Assembly (NCBI GenBank): GCA_039545315.1
Contig: BCIM01000010.1
Span: 1-64,000, forward strand
Source: Kondoa malvinella
Lineage: Eukaryota > Basidiomycota > Agaricostilbomycetes > Agaricostilbales > Kondoaceae
DNA length: 64,000 nucleotides
Reading direction: 5' to 3'
A model generated the notes under the pieces. The model worked only from the letters and a program-made list of their open reading frames with translations. It was not told the DNA's origin and ran no database searches. Shown here piece by piece: positions 1 through 32,604 of the stretch. Position 1 is the stretch's first letter; each line of letters starts with the position of its first letter. A program made the position numbers and the translations under genes.

Positions 1-341
1 CAATGTGAGCCTCTCTATCCGTTGGTATAGAGCTTGAACTGATTGCTCTGCTCTAGCTTGCACCTATTCTCGACAATAAGAAGCCTCTCGTCGACGTCAA
101 AGCGGTTGTTGGCGATGCCAAAGCTCCTCTAGTCGATGCCAAAGCCAAGGTCGGAGGCGAAAAGCTGCTCGATGTCAAGGCCAAAGTCGGCAACGCTGCT
201 GCTCCCCTAGTCAAAGCCGATGCAGCTATCGATCTCAGCGGCAAAGGTCCTCTAGTCAAGGCAGACGCAGCAGTGCCCAACCTTCTCGGCGTCAAGCTTG
301 ATCTTGGAGGTGACAAGAAGGGATCGCTGCTCGGACTGTGA
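1..341 (+). CDS. Secreted repeat protein, 3' end only
   Basis: This is the last exon of a gene of the secreted C-x13-C family, cut off by the window start. Positions 4-56 are the final intron (GTGAGC to CTCTAG), and the exon runs from 57 to the TGA at 339-341. It encodes a tail of about 94 residues made of repeated short blocks such as VDAKAKVGG, LLDVKAKVGN and PLVKADAAV, and ends GSLLGL. It is the exact mirror of the 3' end of the complete gene at 22664-24272 and differs at a handful of bases from the related gene at 3974-5582. No function is known. Confidence 0.8.
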
Positions 342-525
342 GACTGCAGGGCGGTTTTCAGGGCTTTCGGACAATTCTGCCATACTTAGGCATCTTTAGT
401 TGAGATATCAAAATAATGGGCAATTTGAGTAGTAGTCGTTTAGCATAACATTTGGGTCTTANTGCACATTGACTGTGATTTCTTAACATCTATTGAATTG
501 CCCGTTGTCTTGCTATGCTCTTGAG

Positions 526-1445
526 TCAAGCAGTTAATGGATCTGCGCTTCCACGGCGGTATTCCTTGACCTCTTTGCTGACGCTTTCGGATTCCCTCTT
601 CCTTCTCTGTCTGGCCAGCGGTTCCGCGATCACCCATCCAACTAAATAAGCAAACACTTCGATCGAAAACAGAACCCAGAAGATGACGANGATGCTGAAT
701 GGCACTTTCGTTTCCGAATCTGAAGTTTCATTCCATTCACTAGATATGATTCAGCTCAGAAAGAGAGTGAAGCTTGACTAGCACTGACCTGTAACCGGTG
801 TAGAGTTGCGCATCTGCATAGACTGATTAGACTTCGATCGGATACTACAGCAGGGCTCACTAACACAACAAAGCAGCTGTTGCTATGCCCAAACCGATGT
901 GCACATATCGAACATAGCTTCGCTGAGCGTTGAGAGTGACATAGTTGTAAGAAGGCTACTTGAGATAGTGAGCCAAAAGCCACTTAAGCGGCAAAGAGCT
1001 GCTTACGTATTTGGTGAACTTTGCGCCGATACCGCTTAGCCCTTGTATAACAGCAATGATGAAGACTGCAAGCCCGAGCTTGTGATGAATGTCGGAATGT
1101 GCGCCAGAATACTGATTCGGATCCTTGAGCGCCGCATTGCCCAAAGCGAAAGTAATGATGATCAATACGACAGTCGACAAATTGAGTACAGCATGAACCA
1201 GGTTCCAATGACGCCATGTCCTTAGATCTAGTACCACTCAGTGAGCGTAATTTATGCAGATGAACACGCGTACAGCGTCCTACCAGCAGTGCTATGGGCA
1301 TGGTAATGAGCACAGCAGTTGATCCAAGTGTCGCTGCATTTATCAATATGAGCCAATACAGATGTCTGTAAACGCATCAAGACGTACCGTGAGCGACAAC
1401 ATAGCGATCATGCTTTGATTGCGAGATGGGAGACGGGCTGTCCAT
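526..1445 (-). CDS. Cytochrome b561-domain membrane protein
   Basis: Seven exons can be joined into a protein of about 210 residues. Reading from 1445, a short polar N-terminus leads to a first membrane segment (STAVLITMPIALL), then WRHWNLVHAVLN with a second membrane helix, then a segment with SDIHHKLG and a third helix, then VRYVHIGLGIATAALL and a last helix (FSIEVFAYLVGWVI), followed by a basic-acidic tail ending at TGA 526-528. Paired histidines on successive helices are the expected haem ligands of b561 transmembrane electron carriers. An intron near position 1240 would be only 37 nt, so that junction is uncertain. N at 690 lies inside the last helix. A perfect copy lies at 21560-22479. 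Confidence 0.7.
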
Positions 1446-2432
1446 CTTAGAGGCTGCACTTGGATGACAAAGAGAGGCCACTGGTCTTATGCTGACGCCG
1501 ACAGCGATCTTGAGAGGCGAGGTCAGTCCTCAAATATAGACACCGACATCTCGATATAGAACAATCGAAATCTTTTGCCGAGGCAGAGTCCCGCAGCGGA
1601 TTCCACTAGTCCGGTACTAGATGAAATAGTACCAAGAATGACAGTGACCCAAAGTGCACACGATGTGATCCAATCAAGAGTATTGCAAGACAAGCAATAA
1701 AGATGGGATATGTTATGGTCGGTAAAGCTGCAGACGAAGACTTTCCAGGCATATTATACGGAGATAAGAGATCAGCCACTATACTAGTAATGTGAGAGTA
1801 AGATGGGGAGTGACCAAGTTGTGAGATATTCATCTTCGAGCACAATGAAGTGATAGGATATGCGACCATCGAGAGACCACTTTGCTTCGCTCGCATGAGC
1901 AGCATAAGCAATTTACAGAGTGTAAGAGCATGAATGGGTACAAAGATTGTTCGGCGCGACTCGAATCCAAGAGCTTCGCCATGGCCAAACTTAGCCGAGC
2001 ACCTTGCAGCGTGTTGACTGGAGCTCCACTCTACCCTTGTAGGTCCTCTGGCGCTACTGGAAGACTGTGCATTGCCCAACCTCGGTCCGGATGCTGAAAT
2101 TCTTCTTGACCTGTTATCGATGCCAAAGGCCTTGCAAAGCTGCTTCCAATGAGTTCTATGAGCAGAGGTCGCAGCATGCACAACAGCATAGTCAGAGCGG
2201 ATCTTGTCTTGCGGTGTCCGGTCGTTCTCCGCTGGCAGATACGTTTTTGCCCTGAATGCCGAAGTCTGGACGAATAGAAGCGCATCCAGAGCAGCCAACA
2301 CACCGTCCGTGAATTACAAGCGGGCAGAGTCCACCATTAAAGGCAGATATCGCAAGAAACTACATCGATAGCGGTCAACACATCTGGCGCAAACTTCAAA
2401 GTATAGCGAGCTCTCTACGCCCCGGCGGAACA
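1446..2432. other. Gap with one unassigned 231-codon ORF
   Basis: The gap between the b561 gene and the hydrolase holds an open frame of 231 codons on the minus strand (2301 down to 1606). Its N-terminal half looks moderately protein-like, and its last 40 residues include a hydrophobic stretch (FIACLAILLIGSH). No family was recognised. In the hydrolase's own frame the sequence stays open from 2313 to its ATG, so the hydrolase could have an upstream exon. The same stretch is mirrored at 20573-21559. Confidence 0.35.
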
Positions 2433-3617
2433 ATGGTCTCTGTGCAAGATGCTGAAAAGGCAATGACTGAAGCTGCGTCGAAAGGAAATAAAGAATCTAT
2501 CGGTGGTGAGTTGATGCAAGAGCGCGCAGACAGCTCGACTGAGGTCTTTGCGCTTTGTGAGACTCTGTGCCTAGGCTATTCGGCATCTTTCTACCTCTGC
2601 AAGCTCAGCGAGAGCAAGAAATACTCAAAGCTGCACCAGTCGAGCATCAGTATGGACCGCTCGACAGGCAGATGCTCGATTGCTATGTCTCGCAGAACAG
2701 CACTGGCAAATCACCTGTCCTCGTCTTTGTGCACGGAGGCGGTTTTCTGATGGGAGACAAACGGCTCAGCCCTGCAATACATGCCAATTTGGGTCAATTC
2801 TTCAGCTCGCGGGGCTTTGTCACTGTGAGTTGAAGGCTCTGAAAAGTCTCCAACGAGCCTCACGCTGTTGATCGATAGGTCATCATCAACTACAGACTGT
2901 ATGGCAAACATGACGCCGTTTTTCCAAGCGGAGGAGAAGACATCTCTCTCGTTCTCCAATGGCTCGCTGCAAACACCGACAAGCTTCCTTCAGCTGATCT
3001 CAACAACGTCTTCCTTTGCGGCAATAGTGCAGGAGGTGTCCACCTAGCCACCTTTCTCTACGGGCCAGACGCGATCCCGGAAGAAGCTACTTTCAAGACG
3101 GCCGACCAGATCAAGGGCTTGCGCATCAAAGCTGCCGTGCTCATGAGCGCACCTATGCACTTTGGCGACCCGGTCAACGACTCGCGAAGAGCTGTCCTCA
3201 ATGGCTACTTTGGTAGCGCTGAGAGATCAAGCAAGTACGATATAATCGGCCTTCGCAAAGCCAGCAAGAACAACATTCCGACTTTGGTCAGCTGGGGCGA
3301 GCTTGATCCAATGGACGAGATCCTGGATTCTGTGAGATACTTCAATGATTCGCAGACCTCCAGCTGAGCGAATATTCAGATACGCGACTATCTCGCTTTG
3401 TGGAAGAATGGCCAAGTACCTGAAGGTGTAGACAAGCCTGAAGAGATGGTCATGAAGAATCAGACACATATCGTTCCTCCTATGTCTCTCGGTCTTGGTG
3501 GTAAGCGCGTCCCAAAGACTCTACCCCTCAAGGCTCATATGTCAACCAGGCTCTGCTGATCAATGGGGCTTGGATCTGATTGGCTGGATGAAGTCAATAA
3601 TAGATCAAACTGGATGA
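2433..3617 (+). CDS. HSL-type alpha/beta hydrolase, left copy
   Basis: A serine hydrolase of the hormone-sensitive-lipase/esterase group, likely acting on a small ester or lipid. The oxyanion-hole motif VFVHGGGF, the nucleophile elbow GNSAGG, the acid in GELDP and the base in KNQTHI are all visible in order. Exons join across introns near 2505-2561, 2825-2878, 3330-3377 and 3502-3550. The fourth-exon edge matters: without the 48-nt GTGAGA...TTCAG intron at about 3330 an in-frame TGA at 3365 would end the protein before the catalytic His. ATG 2433 fits the family N-terminus. The last exon lies at the repeat edge, so the C-terminus (ending IIDQTG) differs from the right copy (ending SMIAP). Confidence 0.75.
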
Positions 3618-3973
3618 GGTCAATGGGTAGCGCGGTGAATCCCTGAAGCCTTCCGACGCCAACGGCGATAACTCATTGATATGCAACAGTGATATGTATC
3701 TCAGTGACAGCTGATGCCTAGGCTTATTCAACTTGGCGGCCGTCGCGAGTCGTGCTAACCCTAGCGCATTCCAAGATGTGCATTTGGAATTCGACTATGT
3801 TATGTTTTCCTCTTGATAGAACTCTACTTGTGCTGCTCTTTTCTCTTTCTCTTTGCTTCTATCCATCCAAATTCCGATATCGTCTTGGTCACTAACACTT
3901 TTCCAGCCTTCCCAGGTCAATAACACTCTTTTGAAAATCAGCAGTCCTATCTCTCCAGGCTTATTGTTCAGCT
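3618..3973. promoter_or_regulatory. Intergenic region and promoter of secreted gene
   Basis: No gene is seen. The last 170 bases before the ATG are rich in pyrimidine runs (TTTTCTCTTTCTCTTTG), a common feature of strong fungal promoters. It differs from the promoter of the paralog at 24273 onward. Confidence 0.4.
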
Positions 3974-5582
3974 ATGCGCGTCTCTATTGTGGCTCTCACA
4001 GCCTGCGCTTCTTCCATCTACGGTCTACCTCTTCTCGGCCTTGGTGGTAATGATGTGAGTCTGTGTCTCTGTCTGCCTAAGCCGCATCTGACATGTCACT
4101 TGCAGGGTCTGCTCGATGTCAATGCGAAAGTCAAAGTTGGCAATCTGGTCGACGCGACTCTGTCTGCCGAGGTGAGCATATTCTCTTGAGCANTTGACGC
4201 GTTCTGACTTTGAGTAACAGGTCGCCGGCAAAGAAGGTCTTCTTCAAGCTCACGCGACTGCCAACGTTGCCAACATTGTCAAAGCTTGCGTTGATGTCGA
4301 CGTCTTGGCCAACACGCATCGACCAGACTGCCCTGGCTACAAATCTCCAGCTGCTCCTTCGCCCAAGCCTACTCCGAATAGCTTCAAACCCAGACCCATT
4401 AAGATTGCCCCCCGACCGTCTTCCACATCTCAGCCGCCAGCTTGGACGCCTGCTCCATCTCCTCGGCCTCAGGACCAGCTCAAGAACGAGAACAATGGCG
4501 CACCCGAGAAGCCAAAGAACAACAACGCTCAACCACCTAAGCAGAAGGACAACAACAAGCCTGCCAATTGTCCCTTCGGCTTCTTCAGGGACCGCTCAAC
4601 CGGTCAATGCGAACGCAACAACCCGATTCGTCTTGCTCCTCGCCCAGTCCGACCCAGCAAAGATCAAGGCTGCCCATCTGACTACAAGCAGCATCCTTTC
4701 CTTCTTGACCTCTGCATCGACATCGACTTCGACATTGACCTCGACCTGGGCATTTCTGGACCTCACAAAGAATGGGACAGCAACGACAACTGCCCGGACA
4801 GCTGGAAGGACCACCCTCACCTTGTCGGCATTTGCATTGACCCGCTCATTCGCTTTGATCTGGACCTTGGTTTCGGCGGACGTCGCCCGGACAGGCAGCA
4901 GAATTGTGCAGCAGGATGGTCAGTCCTCTCTCTCCTTTTTATCCCTTTGCCCTGTACTCATGCTTGTCCGACAGGCGCAAACACTCTTCCATTCTCAACT
5001 TGTGCTTGGACGTCAGCCTCGACTTGCCTATTCTTGACGGTCTGCTCGGTCGCCAATACGGACGCGACAAGCACTGCACTGCCGGATGGAAGCGCCATCC
5101 TACTGTTGCTGGTCTTTGCATCGACTCTTCGCTCAGCCTCGATCTGTTCAACAACCAACGCCAAACTGATGCTGTTGGCAACTGTGCTCAAGGCTTCAAG
5201 CGTCACGCTACTATCCTTGATCTCTGCTTGGTTGCCGACATCAAAGTGAGCCTCTCTATCCGTTGGTATAGAGCTTGAACTGATTGCTCTGCTCTAGGTC
5301 GCACCTACTCTCGACAACAAGAAGCCTCCTGTCGATGTCAAAGCGGTTGTTGGCGATGCCAAAGCTCCTCTAGTCGATGCCAAAGCCCAGGTCGGAGGCG
5401 AGAAGCTGCTCGATGTCAAGGCCAAAGTTGGCAACGCTGCCGCTCCTCTAGTCAAAGCCGATGCAGCTGTCGATCTCAGCGGCAAAGGTCCTCTAGTCAA
5501 GGCAGACGCTGCAGTGCCCAACCTCCTCGGCGTCAAGCTTGATCTTGGAGGCGATAACAAGGGATCGCTGCTCGGACTGTGA
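3974..5582 (+). CDS. Secreted C-x13-C repeat protein, paralog B
   Basis: Five exons encode about 460 residues. The first exon is a signal peptide (MRVSIVALTACASSIYG). A short repeat-like segment follows (LLDVNAKVKVGNLVDA), then a proline-rich linker, then five copies of a cysteine module with invariant C-x13-C spacing, as in CPSDYKQHPFLLDLC, CPDSWKDHPHLVGIC and CTAGWKRHPTVAGLC. Each module is followed by an acidic, alternating hydrophobic stretch such as DIDFDIDLDL. The last exon repeats VKA/VDAK blocks and ends GSLLGL at TGA 5580-5582. Introns lie near 4055-4105, 4172-4220, 4919-4973 and 5247-5298. I do not recognise the family; a cell-wall or secreted structural role is only inferred. The middle is almost identical to 22664-24272, while both ends have diverged. 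Confidence 0.75.
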
Positions 5583-5795
5583 GGAGGCTTTTGCCGCTCT
5601 CCTGAATGTTCCCTTTCGTGTCTATATCTTCGTGTACATTTATGGTTAGCTTGTTCCATAGTAGTAATCATGTTCCTGTTTATAAGGGGGGTGCGCTGTG
5701 TCACTCAAGGTAATGCAAACGGATTTCCATCATAGTCTTACAAATGCAACACCACCCCTTGTGCCTTTATGTACAATGCTCTCGAGGTTTTCGCT

Positions 5796-8607
5796 TTACA
5801 GCTTGGCAAATCCACCTCTGCCTTTGTTCGCGACATCGAATTCTGCATAGAGTTCGTCCGCTTTCGATTTAAGCACTTTCGAAGCAACGTTTCTCTTAAT
5901 CTTCATTGTCTACAAACCAGTCGATCAGATGCGAGCAATGTCTTGGCCAAATTCAGCTTACTGGAGTCAATGTGTCTTCCTCGACGGAGACTACAGGACC
6001 AGATCAGTCATCATTCGGTAGGTCAACAGAAGGGCGATCAGCCTACAAGGAGTCATCCTGAAAGCAAATTGTCTTGCGGTCTCATAGCCGTTCAGCTTTT
6101 GTGACTTTGCTTCTTGATTGTAAATGTTCAAGGCAGCTTGACGAAGCTTCGGGTCATCGGCAACCTTGCTCAGGCCTGCCATATCGGTCGGGTCGATAGT
6201 CTTGCCAAGAACTTGTTTCACAAGACCTGCCAATCATGATCAACACGTTGAACAGGGTGAAGCAGGTAGCTATGTTACCAGAAAGCACAACTGGGTCGGG
6301 AACAACAAAGAGAATCAAGTGTGATTGTAGGGAGTCGGCGTAGATAAAGGTTTGTTGGCCAAGGGATGGAACACTGTAAACATTTTCAACCTTCTCAACG
6401 GCAACATATTCTCCTTGAGACAGCTTGATCAAGTTCTTGACTGTAGGCATTCACTGCTTTAGTTTTCGGCGACAGATCTGAGAGAAAGATCAGGCTCACC
6501 TCGATCGATAATCTTCAGACGTCCCAAATTATCGATAGCACCTATGTCACCAGTCTCTGCGAGGTCCCTCTGGTCAATAACAGATAGAACGTGTGAGAGG
6601 GAAAGAGCTTACTAAAGAAACCTTCATCATCAAAGGCTTCCTTTGTCTTTTCCGGCTCCTTGTAGTAGCCAGCTGAAGGGTCATGTATTAGCAGGTTTTA
6701 ATTGGTTATACAATGGAACGTACGAATGACACCTTCACCCCTGCAAAGAATTTCTCCTCTGGGCCAAGGTTTGTCGGTGGAGCGATAGCCAAGATCAGCA
6801 ACGTCTGCCAGTTTGATTTCGACAGTCGGAGCTGGAGGACCGACGAATCCACCTGCAGTGTAATCGTTGATAATGTTCTGTTAATTTTGAAGTCAGTTCA
6901 AGTCAAGTAGGCGGTAGAAGGTCTTTAACCTTGGTACATGTGCCTCCGTTCTCGGTAGATCCGTAGCCCTCTTGAATGAAGATACCAAAAGCAACCTGAA
7001 GAAGAGCATCAGTGCGGGCACAGTATATTCAAACTCAAGCACATACCGATAAGAATTCAAGCACTGCTGGCGCTACGGCGGCTGATCCAGTTCCGATGAA
7101 GCGAATGTTGCCACCGACTGCTGCAGCAATCTTCTTCATCATGATGCGATCCCAGAACGCATGAGTTACAGAGCCGTCTTTGCGGAGGTTCTCAATCTTG
7201 GTGCTGAATGCTCGACGCGCCAAAGCGCCTTTCAAACCGGTTGCCTCGATTGTAGATGCCTTGATGACTGGTGACATAAATGAGCGGCTGTCTTTGCGAA
7301 AAGCAGCCTTTCGTACCTTGGTAGAGTTTGTTGAGGACACGAGGAACAGCAACCATGAAAGTCGGTCTCACTAGACAAAATCAGACAATAGACTTCCGCT
7401 TCTGGGACAAAACGCTCACGGATTTGCAGGTCTTCAATCAGCCTTGTATTGTCGCCGCAAGAGTAGCCGATCGCAGTACCGGCGTAAAATGCAATGTCTT
7501 CAGTGAAACGTTCGTAAATGTGCGAGAGGGGAAGGTAAGAGATCATCACGTCGTCGTCTTCGAAAGCGCGACCGTAAATGTGGCCCACGACGCAGATGGC
7601 AAGAAGCTTGTGTGTGAGAATAGCGCCCTTGGGACTTTCAAAAGAGAGCAAGATGAGCTTTGTATGACGAGATGTAAGCCTCGCAACTTACTTGCCAGTG
7701 GTACCAGAGGTGTAACACAAGGAAGCCATGTCTTCTGGCTTGGGAGGAACGTGCGCTCTTGGGTTGGCTTTACCGAGCGTTTCTAATTCGTAGATGTCCA
7801 TGACTTTGATTCCTTTGGAAGCACCCCAAGCTTTCAAGACGTCGCCTTTGGGCAAAGCGCCAGCAGTAGGACCACCTTTGGGCATGTCAATGTCTTCGAA
7901 CCTGTCGACGCTGATAATGGCCTTAAGAAGTGGACATTTGTCGGTGAGGGCGAGCAAAGCAGGAATGTGCGATGGAGACGCAAAGATGACCTGCACAAAG
8001 GGTAAGCTACTGAGTTGGCTGTAAGCGATAGAAATCAGCTTACTCGGCATTCTGAATGCGTAGTGCAGTATTCCACAGCGGAAGGACCCAATGTTTCGTA
8101 TAGAGAGACAAGAACAAGGGAGTAGGCAGTAGTTGCGAGAGAGACGACCTGCCATTCCGGTCTGTTGAGAGCCCAGATACCGACAGTCCACCCAGTGACG
8201 GGGCTCAGAGCCAGATCGTTCTCAGCTAGGTGCATGAGACCCGCTCCGACATTGGTACGACGCTCGGCGATCTCGGCGTAGGTTTCCCATGTGTATCTTG
8301 GCTCGTAATCGCCTAGAGTTGAGCTCCAAGGTCGCTTGCCCAGACACTTTGCGTTTGGCTTGACCTTGAGACCGTGCTCAAAGCACTCGTATGCAGTCTT
8401 TGGGTAGTTGGGGTTTGAGTAGATAGAGAGCAATTCAGTGCCGTGATTGAAGATAGTATTGCGGTAGACACCAGTCTGGCCTTCCTTGCGTGTGCCAGGC
8501 ATTTCCTATCCGCGCGTGAGCTTACAGCGCCTCTCGCCATTGGGTCAACAGCTACGCACGACAGCCAGCGGATCATGAGGGAAGTTGGCCAAAGCCACAG
8601 CCGACAT
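5796..8607 (-). CDS. Long-chain acyl-CoA synthetase (FAA/ACSL type)
   Basis: Activates long-chain fatty acids with ATP and CoA for lipid synthesis or beta-oxidation. A 16-codon first exon (ATG 8607-8605, ending NFPHDPLAV) joins across a 54-nt intron to [11 protein letters not shown], giving the usual family N-terminus. The AMP-binding P-loop [10 protein letters not shown] is near 7690, followed by the [12 protein letters not shown] motif. The last exon, found by splicing at about 5920, ends in the typical lysine-rich tail ([10 protein letters not shown], then GGFAKL) at TAA 5798-5796. Many introns of about 50 nt interrupt it. No peroxisomal SKL-type signal is present. Confidence 0.85.
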
Positions 8608-8936
8608 CTCATGGTCGAAAGGCCTATGGGGCATCGACATGTCAGCACATCAAGCAAACAGCCCAAAGACGAGCTATTCCATACACTCTAGGGAGCTCTG
8701 AAATGACAGGAACCATGTTTGCTATGCTGGTGTTGCTAGTAGTTATAAGGCAAGACAGGCAAAGGCTTGAAGTTGGTCCCCGCTTGCGAGCCTGATCGCC
8801 GAGACACTTGAATTCACATGCATTTGCGACTTGATATATTTGGCCATTGCTGAGTACTAAATGGCGACTATGCAAGAGTATACAAGGCAGGGATATCCTC
8901 GACTTTCCAAATGAATGCTCTTGCTGCGCCATGCCA
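8608..8936. promoter_or_regulatory. Promoter of acyl-CoA synthetase and 3' end of RPC82
   Basis: Short intergenic stretch between two minus-strand genes. It should hold the acyl-CoA synthetase promoter and the RPC82 terminator. No specific motif was recognised. Confidence 0.35.
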
Positions 8937-11227
8937 TCAAAATGACAATCCACCAGAGTCTCGTTCCCGCAGCTGAAGCACCAATAAATCCGACAAGATG
9001 CGCCATTGACCAACCTGCAGATCCCTTAGCTTCCGTTGCAGATCTGACAAATTCTTCCATTCGTCTTCTCGCAACAAGGCCGAATCAGCTTGCACTTCAG
9101 GTCTTTGAGATTTGGCGAGCAGAGCCAACCAAGGCTGCTTCTCTTGCTCCTTGCGTGTCTCAATGTTGCCCAACGCTTGGTACAACATTTTCTCGAGCGT
9201 GTGGTTCGTCTTGTTCCAGTCGACAAACCAGAGGAAGAATGTTCGGGCGATGGCTCGATCTGTCGTCTTTGGAATCTCTTGTTGCTGGATGAAGTGGAAG
9301 CGAGCGAGATCAAAGATCCATTTCCGGCAATCTTTCTGTGAGATCATTGCGATCTTGAAGATCTGCATATCGTGTCTACCATCAGCAGGCATTCATAGAC
9401 CAGATCAATGACCAACGTGATTCTCTTGCAGCTTGCCATGCGTATCCAAGATCCTCATGATTCTAACCGCTTCTTTCCCAGCTTTCCCAGGCTTTTCATT
9501 TCCTTGCAGCACCACTCCGCTCTCTCGATCCGTAAAGCTCTGGTTCCAAAACTTGTCCCGAATGATGCTGTACGCTAGCTGCCTTTTCATGTCCAGTTGT
9601 ACTTTGTGAAAATCAATGACCCATTTCTCACTTCCGTCCGATCCTTGATTGGCATAATTGAACCGAGAGGTATCGTCCGCGTCTTCGTCTCGGTCTTCCT
9701 CCGAGACATTGATGATAGCAGGCCTCAACCAGCAAGGTGTGCTTTTCCCTCTAGTACTTGGATCTTCACCAGCACATGACAAATTGCCTAACAATTCTCG
9801 AACAAAGGAAGCTGTGTTTTCGCGTTTCGGGTTCCATATTTCGTGGTCGTCGTATGATGAATAGCGAGAGGAAGAGCGAGTTTGCATTTCGTGCTCATGA
9901 AAAGCGCTTCGAACAATCTCTTGAAGTCCCTTCTTTGAAGATGCTGATGATGTGAGGGAACCCATGCGTTCTAAGACTGATGTGGTTGAGAAGGGATCTG
10001 GAAGTAGAGCTTAGACCTTATAGCTGATGGAATACGTCCACATACCAGAAAAAGAGCCAAGGAGATCGATCATAGCCGGGTCGCCTTCGCAACGATCTTC
10101 AATGATGCTAAGCGCAGCTCGAATAACCAGTTCTGCAGCTTTCCCATAGTAATTGCGGAAAGCATCTTCTATGAGCTTGTTGCGAATCTTGAGCATGAAG
10201 CGGTCATTGTTGACTCGAATGACTACGCTTTCCTGTAAACGGCTATGTCAGCCGACAACCAATAGAAAGATGCAGCGACCAACATATAGACTGCTATCGT
10301 ATGTCCGTCTCTTTCTTGGCCCATAGCCTTCATCATCAACATCCATCTTCCGTTTTGAGCCAGATTTGGACGAAGAGGGTTTGAAAGAGCTTGAGCTACC
10401 GTATCGATCAGGCGAAGGACCAGCAAACATCTTTTCCCTTGCATGCTTCATTTCAGCATCTTGGCGTTCCGAGACAGCTTCGACAGCTTCTTTCTGCGCA
10501 GACTTGTAAGCTTTCGTAGTTGGGCCAGAAGTGATCTTGTCCAAAGCAATCTTTTCGCGTTCTAGATATCGATCTGCTGCTTTGGTGCTGGCTGATTTGA
10601 TGGCTGGGATGAGGTAAGACCGTTTGAGCATCCAATCAAGCACATTGTAGGCTTCTTCCCTCTCTAAAGAAAACAATGTTCTAGGCACATTCGAATGAAA
10701 TAAAGATGGGATGACTGACTCGCCGAATCATCTTGAGCATAGAATGTCAACAGATCCCCAATTGCAAGTTTGCCATGAGCCAAAACAACTTGCAGTAAGC
10801 CTTTGCTTGTGCCTTCTGCTAGCTTTTCGGCAATAACGAGAAAGTGAGGGAAGCGCAAGCGAGTGACAATCTCATCCGAGTTGATCTCATAGAAGACTGT
10901 GCCTTGAAATTCTTCGCTGTCGTGAGGTATATAATGGTCATTCTGCATCAAGCCAAACTCTTCAGCTCTTGCTCTTCGATGTATGGCATCGTTGGTCATT
11001 GTGCGGGTGAACCAGACGATGTTGTGTTGAATGAGGACAGCCAAAGCCGAGCGAACGAAATGAGGAGACAGAAGGACATGACCTTCAGCTGAGCAAGTTC
11101 GAGAAGACAGGCGAACGAGTTCAGATAAAGTGAGCCGGCCCTTTTCAAGCAGCAAAGTCGCTATTCTGCCAACGTGAGGGCCAAACTGCTGATGGACGAT
11201 ATGCTCGCATAGCAAAGTCTTTTCCAT
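8937..11227 (-). CDS. RPC82: RNA polymerase III subunit RPC3
   Basis: Subunit of the RPC82-RPC34-RPC31 subcomplex that directs Pol III initiation in the nucleus. The N-terminal winged helix reads HIVHQQFGPHVGRIATLLLE then KGRLTLSELVRLS, which is characteristic. The C-terminal winged helix is seen in RTFFLWFVDWNKTNHTLEKM and LYQALGNIETRKEQE, followed by a coiled LSDLQRKLRDL tail. Five minus-strand reading blocks with short introns between them (near 9393, 9966, 10197 and 10690) make up the gene. Length is normal for the family. The final 25 residues are weakly conserved, so the stop at 8937 could be displaced by an intron near 9015. Confidence 0.8.
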
Positions 11228-11545
11228 GGTCTGCGGTGTCGTCGTACTTCTCGTGATGCTATAGCTGCATGTCGTGTTTCAGAGAGGTGATGATGTTCTG
11301 CGGCCAAACAGAGCTGTCTCGTAGAGTTCGCAGAGTCCTTCTTTGGTTGCCAAAAATGACTTGGCCAAAATTCGGAAATCAACAATTGCCACGGTCCAGT
11401 CAAGCTCAGTCAGCTCCTTGCTTCTGGCCACCACCAAGCTGTGAATATACCTCGATCAGCGTACTTGGAGCATACCCTACATATACCTTTGAAAACTCCT
11501 TGACTCTGCCAGTCAGCAATTGCTACAGACTTCGATCGAGCAAAG
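11228..11545. promoter_or_regulatory. Shared promoter of RPC82 and IDO genes
   Basis: The two genes diverge from this 318-bp interval. Nothing specific could be identified in it. Confidence 0.45.
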
Positions 11546-12998: not shown

Positions 12999-13148
12999 AA
13001 AAGTAGACGCGGAACAGAGCTAGACGGGTTGTAAGTGAGAACAAGTTTGTCGTATTACTAGCGCATAGAAGCATTCATTGATAGTTGTCCCATACCTATA
13101 CACAAATTTGATTGTTCCTTCATTCCTTTCCGATCTTTCAACTTCTCT

Positions 13149-15009: not shown

Positions 15010-15203
15010 AGTAGCGTTTGAGTAGAAGGAGTGCAGGAAAATTATCGCAAAGTAGGTCAAAACATGGCAGTGACGTCAATGGCTCGCTGGATTGACGTGT
15101 CCTCTCTAGAGTGCAGATAAATCGCTTCTGCACTGCTCTATTGTGCTGTAAGAAGCAATGCATCCTTTTCTTTGTGTCCACTGTATGCTCGACGCTTTCC
15201 GGG

Positions 15204-15534
15204 TTATTTCCACGGGTCTATCCAGCTTTCTGCTTTAATGGTCTCTTTCGAAAGCTGAGCCGGGTTCAATCTCATGCTTGCTGTACTGAAATTGAAGCTT
15301 CTGTCTTTGTCTGCAATCTGTTTAAAGACGACACGAACTTCGTTCGAGTCTGTACTTGATGGCTCTGTACTGGCTGTTTTCTGCTGTTGCGAATGATAGC
15401 ATTGCCCATACATGCCGGCAGCTCACCACCTCCTCGCCCTCTTCTTGCTGTGCGTTATGATCTGTAACCTCTTTTTCTTTCCGCTGCAACGGCTCAACTA
15501 GAGGCTGTACAGAGTGACTTGCTTCAAGATACAT
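15204..15534 (-). CDS. Small hydrophilic protein, about 93 residues
   Basis: Two exons join in phase: MYLEASHSVQPLVEPLQRKE to QQEEGEE, then after a 50-nt intron with AACAGCAG acceptor, KTASTEPSSTDSNEVRVVF to the end IDPWK at TAA. The composition is coding-like and charged. No family was recognised. Confidence 0.4.
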
Positions 15535-15687
15535 GCTTCGTCATGCATCTGCGCATTGTAGCTATCACAGACTGGAGAGGCCGAGCCGGTTCGAGTCAAG
15601 CCAGATCAATGGGATAAGAGTACACCTTCATTCTCCTCACAGACACCATATTACAAGCCATCCACACTACAGATACTCTCAGACATC

Positions 15688-18196
15688 CTATACCCTTGTG
15701 CGAGCAGCCCTTACTAATTCTTCCTTGGTCAGAGCGAACGAAAAGTAGCGATGCTGCGGTGCAAAGTCAGCGCATGGAAGAAATACGAAGAGAGAATGCT
15801 TACGTTCTTCAGCTCAGCAGCAGACTTTCGGTCGGCTGGATGAGGTTGCAAGATAGATATGAGCAAGTCGTAGAGAACTTGAACTTGTTTGTTGCCGGTA
15901 CGAAGACGTTCCATGTTGGCGGAAATGACAGCAGGATGCAAGCTATCTTCTTGCTCGGGAAAGATCATTGCATAAAAGAAGACTGAATGCAAAGTCAGCA
16001 CAGCACAAAAGAAGCAAGGATTGAAAAGACGGACTTCCAAGAGCATACATGTCTGAAGCCTTGCCATCATACTGCTTCCCCGTGTACAGCTCAGGCGCAG
16101 CAAACGGCACAGTACCACAACCAGAAATAGTTCGACTAGCAAGCTTGGAAAGACCAAAGTCGCCTAAAAAGCAAAGTCAGTTTTAGGGCACAAAGAAGAG
16201 CGAAGACCACCAACCGATGAGAATGTCGCCTTCCTGCGATATGAAGATGTTAGCTGGTTTGATATCGCGGTGACAGATGCCAAGGTAGTCTAGATGGAGA
16301 AGGCCTTCAAGAACTTGTTTGCCCTAGTATGCAAGTCGACCGTGATTCCAAAGAGAGCCATCCATACGCAGCTTGCGTAAGTCTCCGACTGCCAATTCGG
16401 TGACTATGTATTCGACGCCGCCAAGTGTCATGCCATGGTAATAGAAAGTTGGAAAGCGGTCGTGCTGGCTACAAATCTGAAGATGATCGACTTCTGCCTT
16501 GACGTTCTTGCAGTGAAGGAGGCTGTCTAGCAGCAGGATCTTGACGGCAAACTTGCGACTAGAATTGAGTTCGACACCTTGCCAAACAGAACCAAAACCT
16601 CCTGCTCCGAGCTGATAAGTCAATTTGATACCGTGATTGTTGAGCAGGGTGCGGTTGAGCTGAGGCTGAGAAGGAAGAGGACCAAGCATTCGAGCGACTT
16701 CAGCACTCTCACGAGCCTAGCTACAGTATCAGCATAGCGGTAAGTGAAAGAGGACAAGAAGACTGACCTCGCGCATGGTAGTAGCGTTGGCTGTTTCGGA
16801 GACGAGTCAGATGGGAAACATGGGCGAGAGCGAGCAGCTTACTGTTACTGTCGAGCTAGAGCACATATGAGCGAACGTTAAGAGCGGTACAGGAGTGTGA
16901 ACTTACAGACAAAGGGGACATCGTTTTGCTCGTGCCAACATATGCGGTCATGCGCTACATTTGCGTCAGTCAAGCGAGTCGCATTCGAGGAAGAGAAGAG
17001 CTTACCGACACAGCCATAGGAGTCTGCCTAGTGCGACCAATTGTAACCCTCTTGCGCAACATCGCTGGCGATATGCCTGATCCTCCTGTCTTTGTCCGCT
17101 AACAACAAGTCAGTAGCAATCAGAGCGTGCGAGCTGAGAACTCACTAAAGCTTTGCCGGGCAAGTTACGAGCAGCAGGAATCGCCTTGTATATAGATGCC
17201 TGAGATACTAATCAATCACGGAAGGATAAGGTATCAAGTTGACTCACTGCAAGTCCAACAGCGGGACGTGGATGGGGACGTGGATGAGGACGGTTTGCTA
17301 CTAGTTGAGGAGTCCTTGGGACACCTCTGAGTCGCATGATAGCTGAAACTTGTAGGCGAGGAATAGGTTTGTTGGTCTGCGGTGGACACTGGAGAGAACT
17401 TCAGCTCGCGAAGACAATTTCAGTGTACTAGAACATACATATCTGAGTCTGTTAGGCAATCCAAGCGTCTCGAAAAGTCGCCAGAAAGCGTATTCCTGAA
17501 AAGGGTGTCAGCATTCATAATGTAAAGAGAGACCGAACCGGAAGGGGGTGTAGTTGTTCGAGTTCAATGATATCTTGCCGCACTTCCACATGCACTTTGA
17601 CTGGTTCATTCAGACCCTTCGCAAAGCGAACACTCCGTGGGCTGTCACCGAGCCAGAGGATTCTGCATTGAAGGCAGCCAGATGTGTTGGATTATTGGGT
17701 GCATCGTTCAATGGTCTCATTCCCGGTTGCATTTGCAACTCTGCCTGAACGGTGCGTATCCAGAGTGTATAGTTGTATAGTATGCTGGTATGCTGCAAGG
17801 AAACTCGCGATGTGTGGAATCGAGACCTACATCGTACAGAAGATCTTTGATGCGCTGGTTGGCTCGACGAGCTGCCGCACACGGGAGCTTGGTAGCTTTG
17901 TCAAGCTCGACGCGCTGCACTTCACTAGAGAGAATTGTAACGATTTGGCTGCCGGACCATTCGGCATTATTGGGCAGTTGAGCATCTGGACAGGCTCTGA
18001 CGAGTCGCTGATATAAGTTGAGCAGAAGCGCGTCTTCATTCTTGTCTTTGCGGAAAGCGCTGAAAACGTCGGCCGACCTGATTATCCCGATAGGGATGGC
18101 TGTCGGGAACACCAATTTGACGCGTCGCTGGTCTTCGCCAACATCTTCTTCAAGAGGGAGCTCGTCGGGGAGGTTGTTGGCATCTATAGTGGGCAT
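15688..18196 (-). CDS. Serine/threonine protein kinase, long N-terminus
   Basis: The kinase domain is complete over several exons: glycine loop GAGGFGSVWQG, ATP-lysine in KFAVKIL, catalytic loop HRDIKPANI, DFGLSK, and an activation-segment end FAAPELYTGKQYDGKASDMYALG. It ends after a 47-nt intron with NHRYFSFALTKEEL and TAG 15690-15688. Upstream, exons with ATGs at 16689 and 17337 (MRLRGVPRTPQLVANRP) and an N-terminal block from 18196 (MPTIDANNLPDELPLEED) can be chained in phase. That block could also be a separate gene ending near 17400. The region before the kinase domain matched nothing I know. Exons here are unusually small and numerous. Confidence 0.6.
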
Positions 18197-18910
18197 AGTG
18201 AATGTTCTCAAAGAGGTGTGGAAAAAGCAAAGCTGACGCGACTGAGAGGTATGAAACGAGATAGGAGCAAGAACAAGAGACGAAAAGCGCGTGCAAGCCA
18301 GCCAGCACTTGTTTTGTATGCTGGACATGACCAGGAATGCAATCCAGTCGTTCGAGTGCGTCACACACTCGAGACCTTTCCATGTGTGGAAGGTGTACAA
18401 AAGAGCACAGTCACATAGCTTGGGGAGCGCGTATTGGAAAGGACGAGACAGGGTATCAGTGAAGTATGAAGCAAAAATGCTTTGTCCCGGAATGGCGCAG
18501 CGCGATGCAAAGGCAAGAGAGGATCACAAGCAGGATAAGCGCTACTGTATAGCATTGGGCCAATTATGCAGCAGAAACGCCAACATTGCAAACCACAGCA
18601 AAATCAAGATGCATGAAAGCTGGCCGGCTCCGAGTCGAAGAGCAGCGTGCGGATATCTCGGCGAACGGTATACCATTGGTTGCGGGAAACCACACTAGCG
18701 CCAACGGTTAATCGCCAGCTACACTGGTAGCCGTACGAAAGCAACATGGGTCAATCTTGGTCCGAAGTGTTGCTGCCGCGGTAAGCGCTCGCGAAATAGC
18801 GCTCTCGTACAAATCGTACACGGCAGTCATGCGCGAGCATATGTAATCTCGTCCTTGACAGGCCAGGCGCTGTTTCCTTCATGTCATTTCATGCAATTTG
18901 GTTCCCAGCT
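18197..18910. other. Intergenic region without supported gene
   Basis: Open frames here are short and not protein-like. It should contain the kinase promoter and the 3' end of the small gene at 18911. Confidence 0.4.
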
Positions 18911-19279
18911 CTACTTTCCGCTCAATCTCTCGTTCATCTCCTTCTCGCCATCTGTTGGCTCCTGGTCGATAGGAGCAGGGCCGCTTGAGCCTGGAGCAGT
19001 GGTCTGTGCCATGTTCTGTTCATACGTCAGCCCGCTATTGACGCTCAGGATACGTCCAACATACCTGAGGAGGGTTCTTTACTGCATCTTCAACAGTGGT
19101 GTTGTCGACTACCGGGTTGGGAGTGACGGTCTATACCTAGTCAGCTGCCTGCCGATGTTCCGAGCAGCGATCTTACTTGGTGAGTCTTTTTGAATTGACT
19201 GACAGTAGAGCAGCGGTCAGTTTGGTAGCCACACGCTATGCTTGAGCGCTAACCTTTGCTCTACTGTGTTTCCGCTCAT
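18911..19279 (-). CDS. Small hydrophilic protein, 71-72 residues
   Basis: Four tiny exons join in phase from ATG 19279: MSGNTVEQS, QFKKTHQ, TVTPNPVVDNTTVEDAVKNP, then NMAQTTAPGSSGPAPIDQE to LSGK at TAG 18913-18911. Introns of about 50 nt separate them. The product is polar, proline-rich and without a signal or membrane segment, so it is probably disordered. It was missed as a single reading frame because each exon is so short. No family was recognised. Confidence 0.5.
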
Positions 19280-19393
19280 GATTGTTGGTGAAAGAGCAAG
19301 TACGAATTTTGAGGAAGCGCGTCATCACCGCGATGAGCTAAGCGACATTTGGTACAGGCCTTACGGCATTGCATATCGCAGTTACAGGCGGCT

Positions 19394-20572
19394 TCACGGC
19401 GCTATCATTGACTTCATCCAGTCGATCAGATCCAAGCCCCACTGATCAGCAGAGCCTGGTTGACATATGAGCCTTGAGGGGTAGAGTCTTTGGGACGCGC
19501 TTACCACCAAGACCGAGAGACATAGGGGGAACGATATGTGTCTGGTTCTTCATGACCATCTCTTCAGGCTTGTCTACACCTTCAGGTACTCGGCCATTCT
19601 TCCACAAAGCGAGATAGTCGCGTATCTGAATATTCGCTCAGCTGGAGGTCTGCGAATCATTGAAGTATCTCACAGAATCCAGGATCTCGTCCATTGGATC
19701 AAGCTCGCCCCAGCTGACCAAAGTCGGAATGTTGTTCTTGCTGGCTTTGCGAAGGCCGATTATATCGTACTTGCTTGATCTCTCAGCGCTACCAAAGTAG
19801 CCATTGAGGACAGCTCTTCGCGAGTCGTTGACCGGGTCGCCAAAGTGCATAGGTGCGCTCATGAGCACGGCAGCTTTGATGCGCAAGCCCTTGATCTGGT
19901 CGGCCGTCTTGAAAGTAGCTTCTTCCGGGATCGCGTCTGGCCCGTAGAGAAAGGTGGCTAGGTGGACACCTCCTGCACTATTGCCGCAAAGGAAGACGTT
20001 GTTGAGATCAGCTGAAGGAAGCTTGTCGGTGTTTGCAGCGAGCCATTGGAGAACGAGAGAGATGTCTTCTCCTCCGCTCGGAAAAACGGCGTCATGTTTG
20101 CCATACAGTCTGTAGTTGATGATGACCTATCGATCAACAGCGTGAGGCTCGTTGGAGACTTTTCAGAGCCTTCAACTCACAGTGACAAAGCCCCGCGAGC
20201 TGAAGAATTGACCCAAATTGGCATGTATTGCAGGGCTGAGCCGTTTGTCTCCCATCAGAAAACCGCCTCCGTGCACAAAGACGAGGACAGGTGATTTGCC
20301 AGTGCTGTTCTGCGAGACATAGCAATCGAGCATCTGCCTGTCGAGCGGTCCATACTGATGCTCGACTGGTGCAGCTTTGAGTATTTCTTGCTCTCGCTGA
20401 GCTTGCAGAGGTAGAAAGATGCCGAATAGCCTAGGCACAGAGTCTCACAAAGCGCAAAGACCTCAGTCGAGCTGTCTGCGCGCTCTTGCATCAACTCACC
20501 ACCGATAGATTCTTTATTTCCTTTCGACGCAGCTTCAGTCATTGCCTTTTCAGCATCTTGCACAGAGACCAT
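19394..20572 (-). CDS. HSL-type alpha/beta hydrolase, right copy
   Basis: Mirror of the gene at 2433-3617 with the same exons and catalytic motifs (HGGG, GNSAGG, GELDP, QTHI). Inside the repeat arm it is identical; from 19442 down it differs, reading ADQWGLDLIDWMKSMIAP before TGA 19396-19394. This shorter C-terminus looks like the family-normal one, since the left copy carries an extra segment of about 26 bp there. Confidence 0.75.
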
Positions 20573-21559
20573 TGTTCCGCCGGGGCGTAGAGAGCTCGCT
20601 ATACTTTGAAGTTTGCGCCAGATGTGTTGACCGCTATCGATGTAGTTTCTTGCGATATCTGCCTTTAATGGTGGACTCTGCCCGCTTGTAATTCACGGAC
20701 GGTGTGTTGGCTGCTCTGGATGCGCTTCTATTCGTCCAGACTTCGGCATTCAGGGCAAAAACGTATCTGCCAGCGGAGAACGACCGGACACCGCAAGACA
20801 AGATCCGCTCTGACTATGCTGTTGTGCATGCTGCGACCTCTGCTCATAGAACTCATTGGAAGCAGCTTTGCAAGGCCTTTGGCATCGATAACAGGTCAAG
20901 AAGAATTTCAGCATCCGGACCGAGGTTGGGCAATGCACAGTCTTCCAGTAGCGCCAGAGGACCTACAAGGGTAGAGTGGAGCTCCAGTCAACACGCTGCA
21001 AGGTGCTCGGCTAAGTTTGGCCATGGCGAAGCTCTTGGATTCGAGTCGCGCCGAACAATCTTTGTACCCATTCATGCTCTTACACTCTGTAAATTGCTTA
21101 TGCTGCTCATGCGAGCGAAGCAAAGTGGTCTCTCGATGGTCGCATATCCTATCACTTCATTGTGCTCGAAGATGAATATCTCACAACTTGGTCACTCCCC
21201 ATCTTACTCTCACATTACTAGTATAGTGGCTGATCTCTTATCTCCGTATAATATGCCTGGAAAGTCTTCGTCTGCAGCTTTACCGACCATAACATATCCC
21301 ATCTTTATTGCTTGTCTTGCAATACTCTTGATTGGATCACATCGTGTGCACTTTGGGTCACTGTCATTCTTGGTACTATTTCATCTAGTACCGGACTAGT
21401 GGAATCCGCTGCGGGACTCTGCCTCGGCAAAAGATTTCGATTGTTCTATATCGAGATGTCGGTGTCTATATTTGAGGACTGACCTCGCCTCTCAAGATCG
21501 CTGTCGGCGTCAGCATAAGACCAGTGGCCTCTCTTTGTCATCCAAGTGCAGCCTCTAAG
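20573..21559. other. Gap with mirrored 231-codon ORF
   Basis: Exact mirror of 1446-2432. The 231-codon frame is on the plus strand at 20704-21399. No function can be assigned. Confidence 0.35.
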
Positions 21560-22479
21560 ATGGACAGCCCGTCTCCCATCTCGCAATCAAAGCATGATCG
21601 CTATGTTGTCGCTCACGGTACGTCTTGATGCGTTTACAGACATCTGTATTGGCTCATATTGATAAATGCAGCGACACTTGGATCAACTGCTGTGCTCATT
21701 ACCATGCCCATAGCACTGCTGGTAGGACGCTGTACGCGTGTTCATCTGCATAAATTACGCTCACTGAGTGGTACTAGATCTAAGGACATGGCGTCATTGG
21801 AACCTGGTTCATGCTGTACTCAATTTGTCGACTGTCGTATTGATCATCATTACTTTCGCTTTGGGCAATGCGGCGCTCAAGGATCCGAATCAGTATTCTG
21901 GCGCACATTCCGACATTCATCACAAGCTCGGGCTTGCAGTCTTCATCATTGCTGTTATACAAGGGCTAAGCGGTATCGGCGCAAAGTTCACCAAATACGT
22001 AAGCAGCTCTTTGCCGCTTAAGTGGCTTTTGGCTCACTATCTCAAGTAGCCTTCTTACAACTATGTCACTCTCAACGCTCAGCGAAGCTATGTTCGATAT
22101 GTGCACATCGGTTTGGGCATAGCAACAGCTGCTTTGTTGTGTTAGTGAGCCCTGCTGTAGTATCCGATCGAAGTCTAATCAGTCTATGCAGATGCGCAAC
22201 TCTACACCGGTTACAGGTCAGTGCTAGTCAAGCTTCACTCTCTTTCTGAGCTGAATCATATCTAGTGAATGGAATGAAACTTCAGATTCGGAAACGAAAG
22301 TGCCATTCAGCATCNTCGTCATCTTCTGGGTTCTGTTTTCGATCGAAGTGTTTGCTTATTTAGTTGGATGGGTGATCGCGGAACCGCTGGCCAGACAGAG
22401 AAGGAAGAGGGAATCCGAAAGCGTCAGCAAAGAGGTCAAGGAATACCGCCGTGGAAGCGCAGATCCATTAACTGCTTGA
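21560..22479 (+). CDS. Cytochrome b561-domain protein, right copy
   Basis: Exact mirror of the gene at 526-1445, ATG 21560 to TGA 22477-22479. The exon before the last is only 25 nt and supplies the end of the YAQLYTGY segment after a histidine-bearing helix. The N at 22315 falls in the codon before VIFWVLF. Confidence 0.7.
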
Positions 22480-22663
22480 CTCAAGAGCATAGCAAGACAA
22501 CGGGCAATTCAATAGATGTTAAGAAATCACAGTCAATGTGCANTAAGACCCAAATGTTATGCTAAACGACTACTACTCAAATTGCCCATTATTTTGATAT
22601 CTCAACTAAAGATGCCTAAGTATGGCAGAATTGTCCGAAAGCCCTGAAAACCGCCCTGCAGTC

Positions 22664-24272
22664 TCACAGTCCGAGCAGCGATCCCTTCTTGTCACCTCCA
22701 AGATCAAGCTTGACGCCGAGAAGGTTGGGCACTGCTGCGTCTGCCTTGACTAGAGGACCTTTGCCGCTGAGATCGATAGCTGCATCGGCTTTGACTAGGG
22801 GAGCAGCAGCGTTGCCGACTTTGGCCTTGACATCGAGCAGCTTTTCGCCTCCGACCTTGGCTTTGGCATCGACTAGAGGAGCTTTGGCATCGCCAACAAC
22901 CGCTTTGACGTCGACGAGAGGCTTCTTATTGTCGAGAATAGGTGCAAGCTAGAGCAGAGCAATCAGTTCAAGCTCTATACCAACGGATAGAGAGGCTCAC
23001 ATTGNCATCGGCCACCAANCACAGATCTAGGATAGTAGCGTGACGCTTGAAGCCTTGAGCNCAGTTGCCAACAGCATCAGTTTGGCGTTGGTTGTTGAAC
23101 AGATCGAGGNTGAGCGAAGNGTCGATGCAAAGACCAGCNACAGTNGGATGGCGCTTCCATCCGGCAGTGCAGTGCTTGTCGCGTCCGTATTGGCGACCGA
23201 GCAGACCGTCAAGAATAGGCAAGTCGAGGCTGACGTCCAAGCACAAGTTGAGAATGGAAGAGTGTTTGCGCCTGTCGGACAAGCATGAGTACAGGGCAAA
23301 GGGATAAAAAGGAGAGAGAGGACTGACCATCCTGCTGCACAATTCTGCTGCCTGTCCGGGCGACGTCCGCCGAAACCAAGGTCCAGATCAAAGCGAATGA
23401 GCGGGTCAATGCAAATGCCGACAAGGTGAGGGTGGTCCTTCCAGCTGTCCGGGCAGTTGTCGTTGCTGTCCCATTCTTTGTGAGGTCCAGAAATGCCCAG
23501 GTCGAGGTCAATGTCGAAGTCGATGTCGATGCAGAGGTCAAGAAGGAAAGGATGCTGCTTGTAGTCAGATGGGCAGCCTTGATCTTTGCTGGGTCGGACT
23601 GGGCGAGGAGCAAGACGAATCGGGTTGTTGCGTTCGCATTGACCGGTTGAGCGGTCCCTGAAGAAGCCGAAGGGACAATTGGCAGGCTTGTTGTTGTCCT
23701 TCTGCTTAGGTGGTTGAGCGTTGTTGTTCTTTGGCTTCTCGGGTGCGCCATTGTTCTCGTTCTTGAGCTGGTCCTGAGGCCGAGGAGATGGAGCAGGCGT
23801 CCAAGCTGGCGGCTGAGATGTGGAAGACGGTCGGGGGGCAATCTTAATGGGTCTGGGTTTGAAGCTATTCGGAGTAGGCTTGGGCGAAGGAGCAGCTGGA
23901 GATTTGTAGCCAGGGCAGTCTGGTCGATGCGTGTTGGCCAAGACGTCGACATCAACGCAAGCTTTGACAATGTTGGCAACGTTGGCAGTCGCGTGAGCTT
24001 GAAGAAGACCTTCTTTGCCGGCGACCTGTTACTCAAAGTCAGAACGCGTCAAATGCTCAAGAGAATATGCTCACCTCGGCAGACAGAGTCGCGTCGACCA
24101 GATTGCCAACCTGGACTTTCGCATTGACATCGAGCAGACCCTGTGTACGGACTGTCAGCCAGGGCATAGTGAAAAGGACAAGGTGTCTCACATCGTTACC
24201 GCCCAAACCGAGGATTGGCAGACCATAGATCGAAGAAGCGCAAGCAGCGAGCGCAACGAATGAAGCACGCAT
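22664..24272 (-). CDS. Secreted C-x13-C repeat protein, paralog A
   Basis: Full-length relative of 3974-5582 with the same five-exon structure. Its signal peptide exon is different in sequence (MRASFVALAACASSIYG) and so is its promoter, but from the second exon to the fifth cysteine module the two genes are nearly identical (KVQV here for KVKV there). Five C-x13-C modules and the VKA/VDAK repeat tail are present. Seven N calls between 23005 and 23145 fall in the last two modules and leave several residues undetermined. Stop TGA is at 22666-22664. Function unknown; secreted by signal peptide. Confidence 0.75.
23005..23145. other. Cluster of seven ambiguous bases
   Basis: N at 23005, 23019, 23061, 23110, 23120, 23139 and 23145, in the coding exon of paralog A directly outside the repeat arm. 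Ns elsewhere in the window are isolated (462, 690, 4192 and two mirrors). This pattern fits a consensus in which reads of two similar copies were mixed. Confidence 0.8.
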
Positions 24273-25028
24273 AGTGTTGTAGTAAGGCTTGAAGAGAAAG
24301 GACTGGTGATCTTCAAAAGGAACGTGGGTGACCTGAAAAGGTTGGAGGAAAGAGACAAGTAGAAGAGAGAAGGCTTGAGTAATGAAAGAAGGGAGAAAGA
24401 GGAGCAGCAGCGCGCTTTTTGTGAGCATCGCCAGAATAACACAGTCTAGTTCCGAATGGAGACTTGCTTGGATAGCCCAGGGTGCTTCGAAAGTGCACTG
24501 TGAATGCCGAGTGTACACGTCCACTTCTATACGCTCTTTGGAGACATAGACAGACAGCAGATAGGCCCGGAAAACACGACTTTAACGCGAGAATCAGACT
24601 GGTGCAGTCCTTTGATTGAATGCAGCCAGACTCCAACAGCAATCTATAGTAGCATCCAAGAGATCAACAGTCGTGTAGCTTGCACAGCTTTGGCGCGTGC
24701 GCGACACAGGAAAATCTGTGGAAAGGCTTCGCGATGTTGTCGTCAAATCGTCAAGACCGCTCTGACTGAGCTCTTTCAGAACATCCGTTTCAGTCTCTTG
24801 TGCTATTTCTTCTTTTTCTTGATGCACGGTAGCATTTCACTGCCTGGTCTTCGAACGTTTGCTTTTTTAAATTCTTTCGAGACAAGGCTTTTTCGCTGCT
24901 CTTGTTCCTTTGCTCTACCTCGCTTTCTCGGGGTCTCTTAGCCGTGGATGAGCATCTTCTCGGACTGTGACGGAAAACAGACATGACCGTCGTTCTGGTG
25001 TCAGTACTCAATTCCGCAAAGAAGCAAC
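24273..25028. other. Promoter of paralog A and gene-free stretch
   Basis: The first 200 bases on the minus strand carry pyrimidine-rich runs as expected for a fungal promoter. Beyond that only short, unrecognised open frames occur on either strand. Confidence 0.4.
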
Positions 25029-32538: not shown

Positions 32539-32604
32539 GGCTTGTCAAGGGTCTATGATTGAATGCGAGAGTGGAAAAGTAGAGCAAACCGAGAGGTGAG
32601 CTAG

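What the first reader, a model, noticed from the sequence alone, without database searches (positions are those of the whole stretch)
1..23004. Perfect 3.56-kb inverted repeat whose arms share their ambiguous bases
1-3562 and 19443-23004 are exact reverse complements, and N calls at 462 and 690 recur at 22543 and 22315 (both pairs sum to 23005). Independent sequencing of two loci would not give the same unresolved bases. The likeliest reading is that one collapsed consensus was placed twice, giving a false perfect palindrome at the contig start over two similar but not identical loci. A real gene-converted palindrome remains possible.
Basis: partly seen in the sequence, partly recalled or inferred. 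Interest (0 to 1): 0.75.

Follow-up and report, generated by a model that had tools for sequence, protein, structure and literature searches.

The report
Collapsed inverted repeat at contig start
A draft fungus-like genome seems to hold a real but imperfect pair of mirror-image five-kilobase copies that the assembler partly merged and printed three times, so the "perfect palindrome" is largely an assembly effect over an ordinary duplication.

Summary
The inverted repeat is there but not exact: 4 mismatches in 1-3562 against 19443-23004 besides the two N pairs, and 8 to the end of homology at 3603/19402. The block occurs a third time near the end of a 37-kb contig, C19. C19 shares seven further Ns with the right arm, reads C where both arms read N, and reads N where the arms read A and G. 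At 2 of 11 distinct N sites other copies show two bases, so I read the Ns as differences between merged copies. The contig starts just after the mirror of the N at 23005; C11 shows the same signature. Yet differences cluster at the inner arm edge (C10) and the outer edge (C19), each beside its own flank, so the copies are real. Best reading: two arms of about 5.0 kb around a 15.8-kb gene-bearing spacer, with C19 as missing left neighbour; the arms' middle cannot be trusted base by base. C19 and C10 imply opposite spacer orientations: a misjoin, or a flip/flop inversion as in Saccharomyces. Reads are needed to decide.

The parts
1..3603 (+). Left arm (A), truncated: 3' end of gene S (1-341), weak cytochrome b561-like frame (959-1237, minus; below the curated cut-off), unassigned frame (1609-2313, minus), esterase-like frames (2561-2830 and 2879-3364)
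   Evidence: starts at the base after the mirrored N (23005)
3604..19401 (+). Spacer: S-gene copy P (3902-5583), AMP-binding frames (7235-7687 and 8038-8505, minus), RPC82 helix-turn-helix frame (10667-11278, minus), indoleamine dioxygenase frames (11504-12358 and 12225-12995), weak kinase-like frame (16327-16716, minus)
   Evidence: Pfam. For 3600-13500 one search listed matches to the S-gene part only (4 of 5 candidates scored, its own place not among them). 15398-18748 is 91% like C19:13805-17159
19402..24422 (-). Right arm (B), full length about 5.0 kb; 24422->18570 equals C19:31407-37260 at 99.88%
3902..5583 (+). S-gene copy P: 94% like the arm copy overall, exactly identical over 907 bp (4194-5100)
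462..462 (.). N, paired with 22543; C19 reads C
690..690 (.). N, paired with 22315; C19 reads C
4193..4193 (.). N in copy P, where arm B reads T and C19 reads A
23005..23145 (.). Seven single Ns, each also N in C19 (32685-32825); the first mirrors the base before contig position 1
3414..3603 (+). Inner edge of arm A with seven differences from B and C19
24423..24610 (+). Outer flank of arm B; the C1 relative stays similar across this boundary, so this junction looks ancestral

Best explanation
A genuine inverted segmental duplication (two arms of about 5.0 kb, roughly 99.6% alike, around a 15.8-kb gene-bearing spacer) was partly merged by a graph-type draft assembler. The merged stretch was written out three times: C10:1-3603, C10:19402-23004 and C19:32826-36428. 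The Ns are sites where copies differ. C10 starts where the merged stretch meets such an N. C19 is most likely the true left neighbour of C10, and its last 832 bp were continued along the wrong arm's inner flank. Shown: shared and discordant Ns, edge differences, contig overlaps. Inferred: that every N is such a site, two rather than three copies, the kind of assembler, and the misjoin.
For: N sites shared between A, B and C19, and two bases visible at A2926 and P4193. 12 of 12 window Ns lie in repeat copies that make up 16% of the window. Differences at arm edges beside distinct flanks. C19's 832-bp tail has 0 differences from C10, against 3.5 expected at the arms' rate, P about 0.03. Same signature at C11: 1-671 mirrors 7228-7897, with an N at 7898. 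Exact overlaps between contig ends of 95, 182 and 273 bp. A relative on C1 stays similar across the outer boundary on the B side (z 25.3) but not on the C19 side (z 1.5), so the duplication has a history.
Against: Five Ns at the start of C8 lie in a stretch with no second copy in the assembly, so Ns may have other causes, or that copy was lost. For 9 of the 11 distinct N sites two alternative bases are not visible. No reads or depth were available; sequencing method and assembler are unknown. The P of 0.03 against a third copy is weak and assumes an even rate of differences.
Confidence: 0.68

Rival explanations
1. Flip/flop: the spacer exists in both orientations among the sequenced cells or nuclei because the arms recombine, so C10 and C19 each record one isomer.
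For: C10 joins the flank from 24423 on, through an arm, to the inner flank ending at 19401. C19 joins its own flank, through an arm, to that same inner flank. With two arms these are the two isomers. The S copies look homogenised: 907 bp identical inside a gene whose ends are diverged. Precedent in Saccharomyces (PMC9731477).
Against: An arm that cannot be resolved gives the same conflict through a wrong join alone. In Saccharomyces no change of orientation was seen in about 53,800 mitoses and 950 meioses (passage), so two isomers in one culture are not expected unless it is heterozygous or switching is faster here.
Confidence: 0.17
2. Three real copies: C19 is a separate locus that duplicated arm plus inner flank.
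For: C19 has its own outer flank and four differences from B near it. C19 and C10 share a second, 91% alike block.
Against: 832 bp beyond the arm are identical with no N. Two copies suffice for every junction except C19's tail.
Confidence: 0.12
3. Pure fold-back artefact: the left arm does not exist and C10's start is a mirrored copy of its own interior.
For: The contig starts right after a mirrored N, at C10 and at C11.
Against: Seven differences at A's inner edge, 4 of 7 of them silent in the esterase-like frame (read), and a diverged stub of the arm end just inside the spacer (0 of 1000 shuffles reach its score).
Confidence: 0.03

Closest known systems
Saccharomyces chromosome XIV flip/flop inverted repeats (YNL018C/YNL034W; PMC9731477)
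   Same: Two near-identical arms of 4-5 kb in opposite orientation, each with protein genes, around a block of 16-24 kb with other genes. Copies look homogenised. That paper says short-read assemblies tend to break at such repeats and usually merge them.
   Different: No independent evidence here that the orientation varies. Different genes. ARAGORN listed no tRNA gene in the window (bacterial setting). Only one genome was available.
Collapsed repeat in draft assemblies, as described in the Pilon paper (PMC4237348)
   Same: Mixed evidence at sites where true copies differ gives ambiguous calls.
   Different: Here the merged stretch is printed three times, with partly different calls, rather than in fewer copies than the genome holds.
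Inverted segmental duplications kept alike by gene conversion (general; recalled)
   Same: High identity in the middle, differences at the edges.
   Different: The middle's identity is partly an assembly product, so conversion cannot be measured here.

Membership tests
Collapsed repeat in an assembly | Ambiguous bases lie where true copies differ | tested here: met
   Two bases visible in other copies at 2 of 11 distinct N sites, A2926 (A/G/N) and P4193 (N/T/A); not visible at the other 9
Collapsed repeat in an assembly | Abnormal read depth | not testable with these tools
   no reads held
Real inverted segmental duplication | Each copy has its own flank and its own variants | tested here: met
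   inner edge of A and outer edge of C19; C1 relative polarises the outer boundary
Flip/flop inversion polymorphism | Near-identical inverted arms around single-copy genes | tested here: met
   Arms. For 3600-13500 one search listed matches to the S-gene part only (4 of 5 candidates scored). Part of the spacer, 15398-18748, does have a 91% relative on C19
Flip/flop inversion polymorphism | Both orientations present | tested here: inconclusive
   C10 and C19 imply opposite orientations, but a misjoin gives the same
Perfect palindrome | Arms identical | tested here: not met
   4 mismatches within the claimed span, 8 to the end of homology
Transposon with long terminal inverted repeats | Transposase or mobility gene | tested here: inconclusive
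   No such Pfam hit in the 19 frames scanned of the 110 stop-to-stop frames of 85 aa or more in 1-30000, nor in one frame at 50652; 91 frames were not scanned

The most novel reading that the evidence does not exclude
A flip/flop locus in this fungus-like genome: inverted arms carrying a gene family without Pfam match are kept alike by gene conversion, with a third gene copy inside the spacer, and crossing-over inverts a 15.8-kb block that includes housekeeping-type genes, both isomers having been sampled in one assembly.
Probability: 0.15. Interest if true: 0.45.

Novelty: new member of a known kind. Interest (0 to 1): 0.22.

Why it matters
Mostly as a caution. Arm identity, gene-copy counts and the start of this contig should not be used as they stand, and C19 should be tested as the neighbour of C10. 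If both orientations prove real, it would be another fungal flip/flop of the Saccharomyces kind and a test of whether homogenised gene families drive inversion.

Tried and rejected
A chromosome-end palindrome: not supported. TTAGGG x3 has no match in the genome. An end-specific ATAACCTCAATAAC array lies at six contig ends, none of them of C10 or C19.

A lost splice site in arm A at 3563: considered, then dropped. With an acceptor just before 3550 the change is silent (translations).

Homology beyond the arm ends, as a sign of an older and longer duplication: not significant in 300-base tests (z 0.2 inner, 1.7 outer). A test that included the arm's own end found a 34-column stub just inside the spacer.

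Naming the organism: failed. Two protein searches gave one unnamed hit each; a paper search for the genome size and scaffold number gave none. A paper search for the telomere-like motif gave 19 papers; the 8 listed looked unrelated by title and start of abstract.

Identifying the assembler: the 95-bp overlaps equal K-1 for K = 96, the ALLPATHS-LG default (recalled, from no call). Not proven.

Full report
What is in the sequence. The window is the first 64 kb of contig C10 (797,639 bases) of an unnamed 19.09-Mb, 20-contig genome. Short introns with fungal-looking splice and branch sites suggest a fungus; that is my inference and was not tested. 1-3562 and 19443-23004 are near-exact reverse complements: 4 mismatches plus two columns with N in both arms. 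BLASTN extends the match to 1-3603 against 23004-19402, with 8 mismatches in 3603.

A third copy. Searching the whole genome with 1-3562 gives five places: the two arms, C19:32826-36387, a 342-base stretch at C10:5242-5583 (94%), and a 389-base stretch on C1 (80%). C19 is 37,260 bases long. Its right end, 31407-37260, equals window 24422->18570 at 99.88%. So the full arm is about 5.0 kb (24422 to 19402), and C10's left arm is cut short by the contig start.

What the Ns are. The 12 Ns of the window are single bases, and 12 of 12 lie in repeat copies covering 10,306 of 64,000 bases (the chance figure given there, 3e-10, treats clustered Ns as independent and is too small). Seven of them, 23005-23145, are also N at C19:32685-32825. 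At 462 and 690 both arms read N but C19 reads C. At 2926 the arms read A and G while C19 reads N. In the spacer's gene copy, 4193 reads N where B reads T and C19 reads A. So at 2 of 11 distinct N sites the copies show two bases; I infer that the Ns are places where reads of different copies disagreed, and that one merged sequence was used in several places, though called separately at some sites. In 24 other stretches of this genome (18 contig starts, C10's end, one stretch of C1, four that make up C19; 224,638 readable bases) there are 14 single Ns: 8 in C19's arm copy, 1 at C11:7898 and 5 in C8:138-1829. The C8 stretch has no second copy in the assembly, which does not fit directly unless the other copy was lost.

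Why the contig starts there. Position 1 is the mirror of 23004, and 23005 is an N. C11 repeats the pattern: 1-671 mirrors 7228-7897 with 668 of 671 columns identical, and 7898 is an N; no further copy was found. Other contig ends overlap exactly: C13:1-95 = C20:1-95 = C20:25914-26008; C10:797367-797639 = C20:94-366; the starts of C3 and C18 share 182 bases in inverted orientation. This is how contigs cut from an assembly graph would look; 95 is K-1 for K = 96 (ALLPATHS-LG default, recalled). I infer that contigs in this draft tend to end inside repeats.

Why the copies are still real. Counting C19's outer part and C10's inner part as one arm, that arm differs from arm B at 21 sites in 5,022 bases, Ns and one indel included. 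They are not evenly spread: four at the outer edge (C19:31484-31870), seven in the N cluster, three scattered (A462, A690, A2926), and seven in the last 190 bases (3414-3599). Each edge cluster adjoins a flank of its own. In the esterase-like frame the changes at 2926, 3460 and 3478 are silent and 3414 is not; in the last exon as I read it, 3563 and 3581 are silent and 3583 and 3599 are not, so 5 of 8 are silent. That frame also holds an in-frame stop in both arms, so the pattern is only weak evidence of selection. Just inside the spacer, 34 columns resemble the end of the arm again (score 45 against a shuffle mean of 14.5, 0 of 1000 shuffles reach it). The C1 relative of the first arm gene stays similar for nearly 190 bases past the outer arm boundary on the B side (z 25.3) but not on the C19 side (z 1.5). 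I infer that B's outer junction is the older one and that the other arm is the derived copy.

How it fits together. Two copies explain every junction but one. C10 says: right flank (from 24423), arm, inner flank ending at 19401; and arm, inner flank starting at 3604. C19 says: its own flank, arm, then the inner flank ending at 19401 again, for 832 bases with no difference (3.5 expected at the arms' rate, P about 0.03). If C19 is the left neighbour of C10, C19's tail is either a wrong continuation or the inverted isomer. The spacer holds AMP-binding, RPC82-like and indoleamine dioxygenase-like frames, in a stretch for which one search listed no second copy outside the S gene (4 of 5 candidates scored), and a weak kinase-like frame (25 bits against a cut-off of 31.7) in the block that has a 91% relative on C19. 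The arm holds the S gene (no Pfam match in the one exon frame scanned, from copy P), a weak cytochrome b561 match (22.2 against 23 bits), and an esterase-like gene (BD-FAE, Abhydrolase_3).

Homogenisation. The S gene occurs in the arm, at 3902-5583, on C1 (70%), and as a distant relative at C10:400392 (46%). Copy P and arm B are identical for 907 bases (4194-5100) but clearly diverged upstream, and 5242-5583 differs from the arm at 19 of 342 bases. A graph assembler merges only nearly identical sequence (general knowledge), so true identity is probably high there. That is what recent gene conversion would leave, but the exact figure is not trustworthy.

Compared with what is known. The closest biological parallel is the Saccharomyces flip/flop region: 4.2-kb inverted arms, a 24-kb spacer, and homogenisation by gene conversion with occasional crossing-over (PMC9731477: outline with abstract, passages, and section 6 read). 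That paper states that short-read assemblies tend to break at these repeats, usually merge them, and obscure their differences. Pilon's paper describes mixed calls in collapsed repeats (PMC4237348, passages). I saw passages of PMC6434015 on ALLPATHS-LG ambiguity output and of PMC3861042, which added little. The paper searches were otherwise read as listings only, with starts of abstracts.

Verdict. Most likely an ordinary inverted duplication, over-printed by a draft assembly. The perfection is false, the duplication is very probably real, and the orientation of the spacer is open.

Noticed in passing
G000 ends of C1, C2, C3 (right) and C7, C12, C17 (left): An irregular array (ATAACCTCAATAACGCAGG and shorter units; match spacings 9, 19 and once 23) sits at six contig ends, always with the same strand facing inward: 18 of 20 genome hits of ATAACCTCAATAAC lie within 65 bases of an end. 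It behaves like an unusual telomere repeat; TTAGGG x3 has no match.
   Followed up: partly
G000:C11:1-671 and 7228-7897: A second inverted repeat at a contig start, ending next to an N at 7898, with three differences at its inner edge; no other copy found in the genome.
   Followed up: partly
C10:797367-797639, C20:1-366 and 25914-26008, C13:1-95: Exact end overlaps suggest the order C10-C20-C13; C20 carries the same 95 bases at both ends.
   Followed up: no
15398-18748 and C19:13805-17159: A second duplicated block, 91% alike and in the same contig orientation, holding a weak kinase-like frame.
   Followed up: no
2879-3505 and its mirror in arm B: The esterase-like frame carries one in-frame stop in both arms before its C-terminal part: a broken gene, or an error in the merged stretch.
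   Followed up: no
G000:C8:1-1829: Five single Ns at a contig start with no second copy in the assembly.
   Followed up: partly
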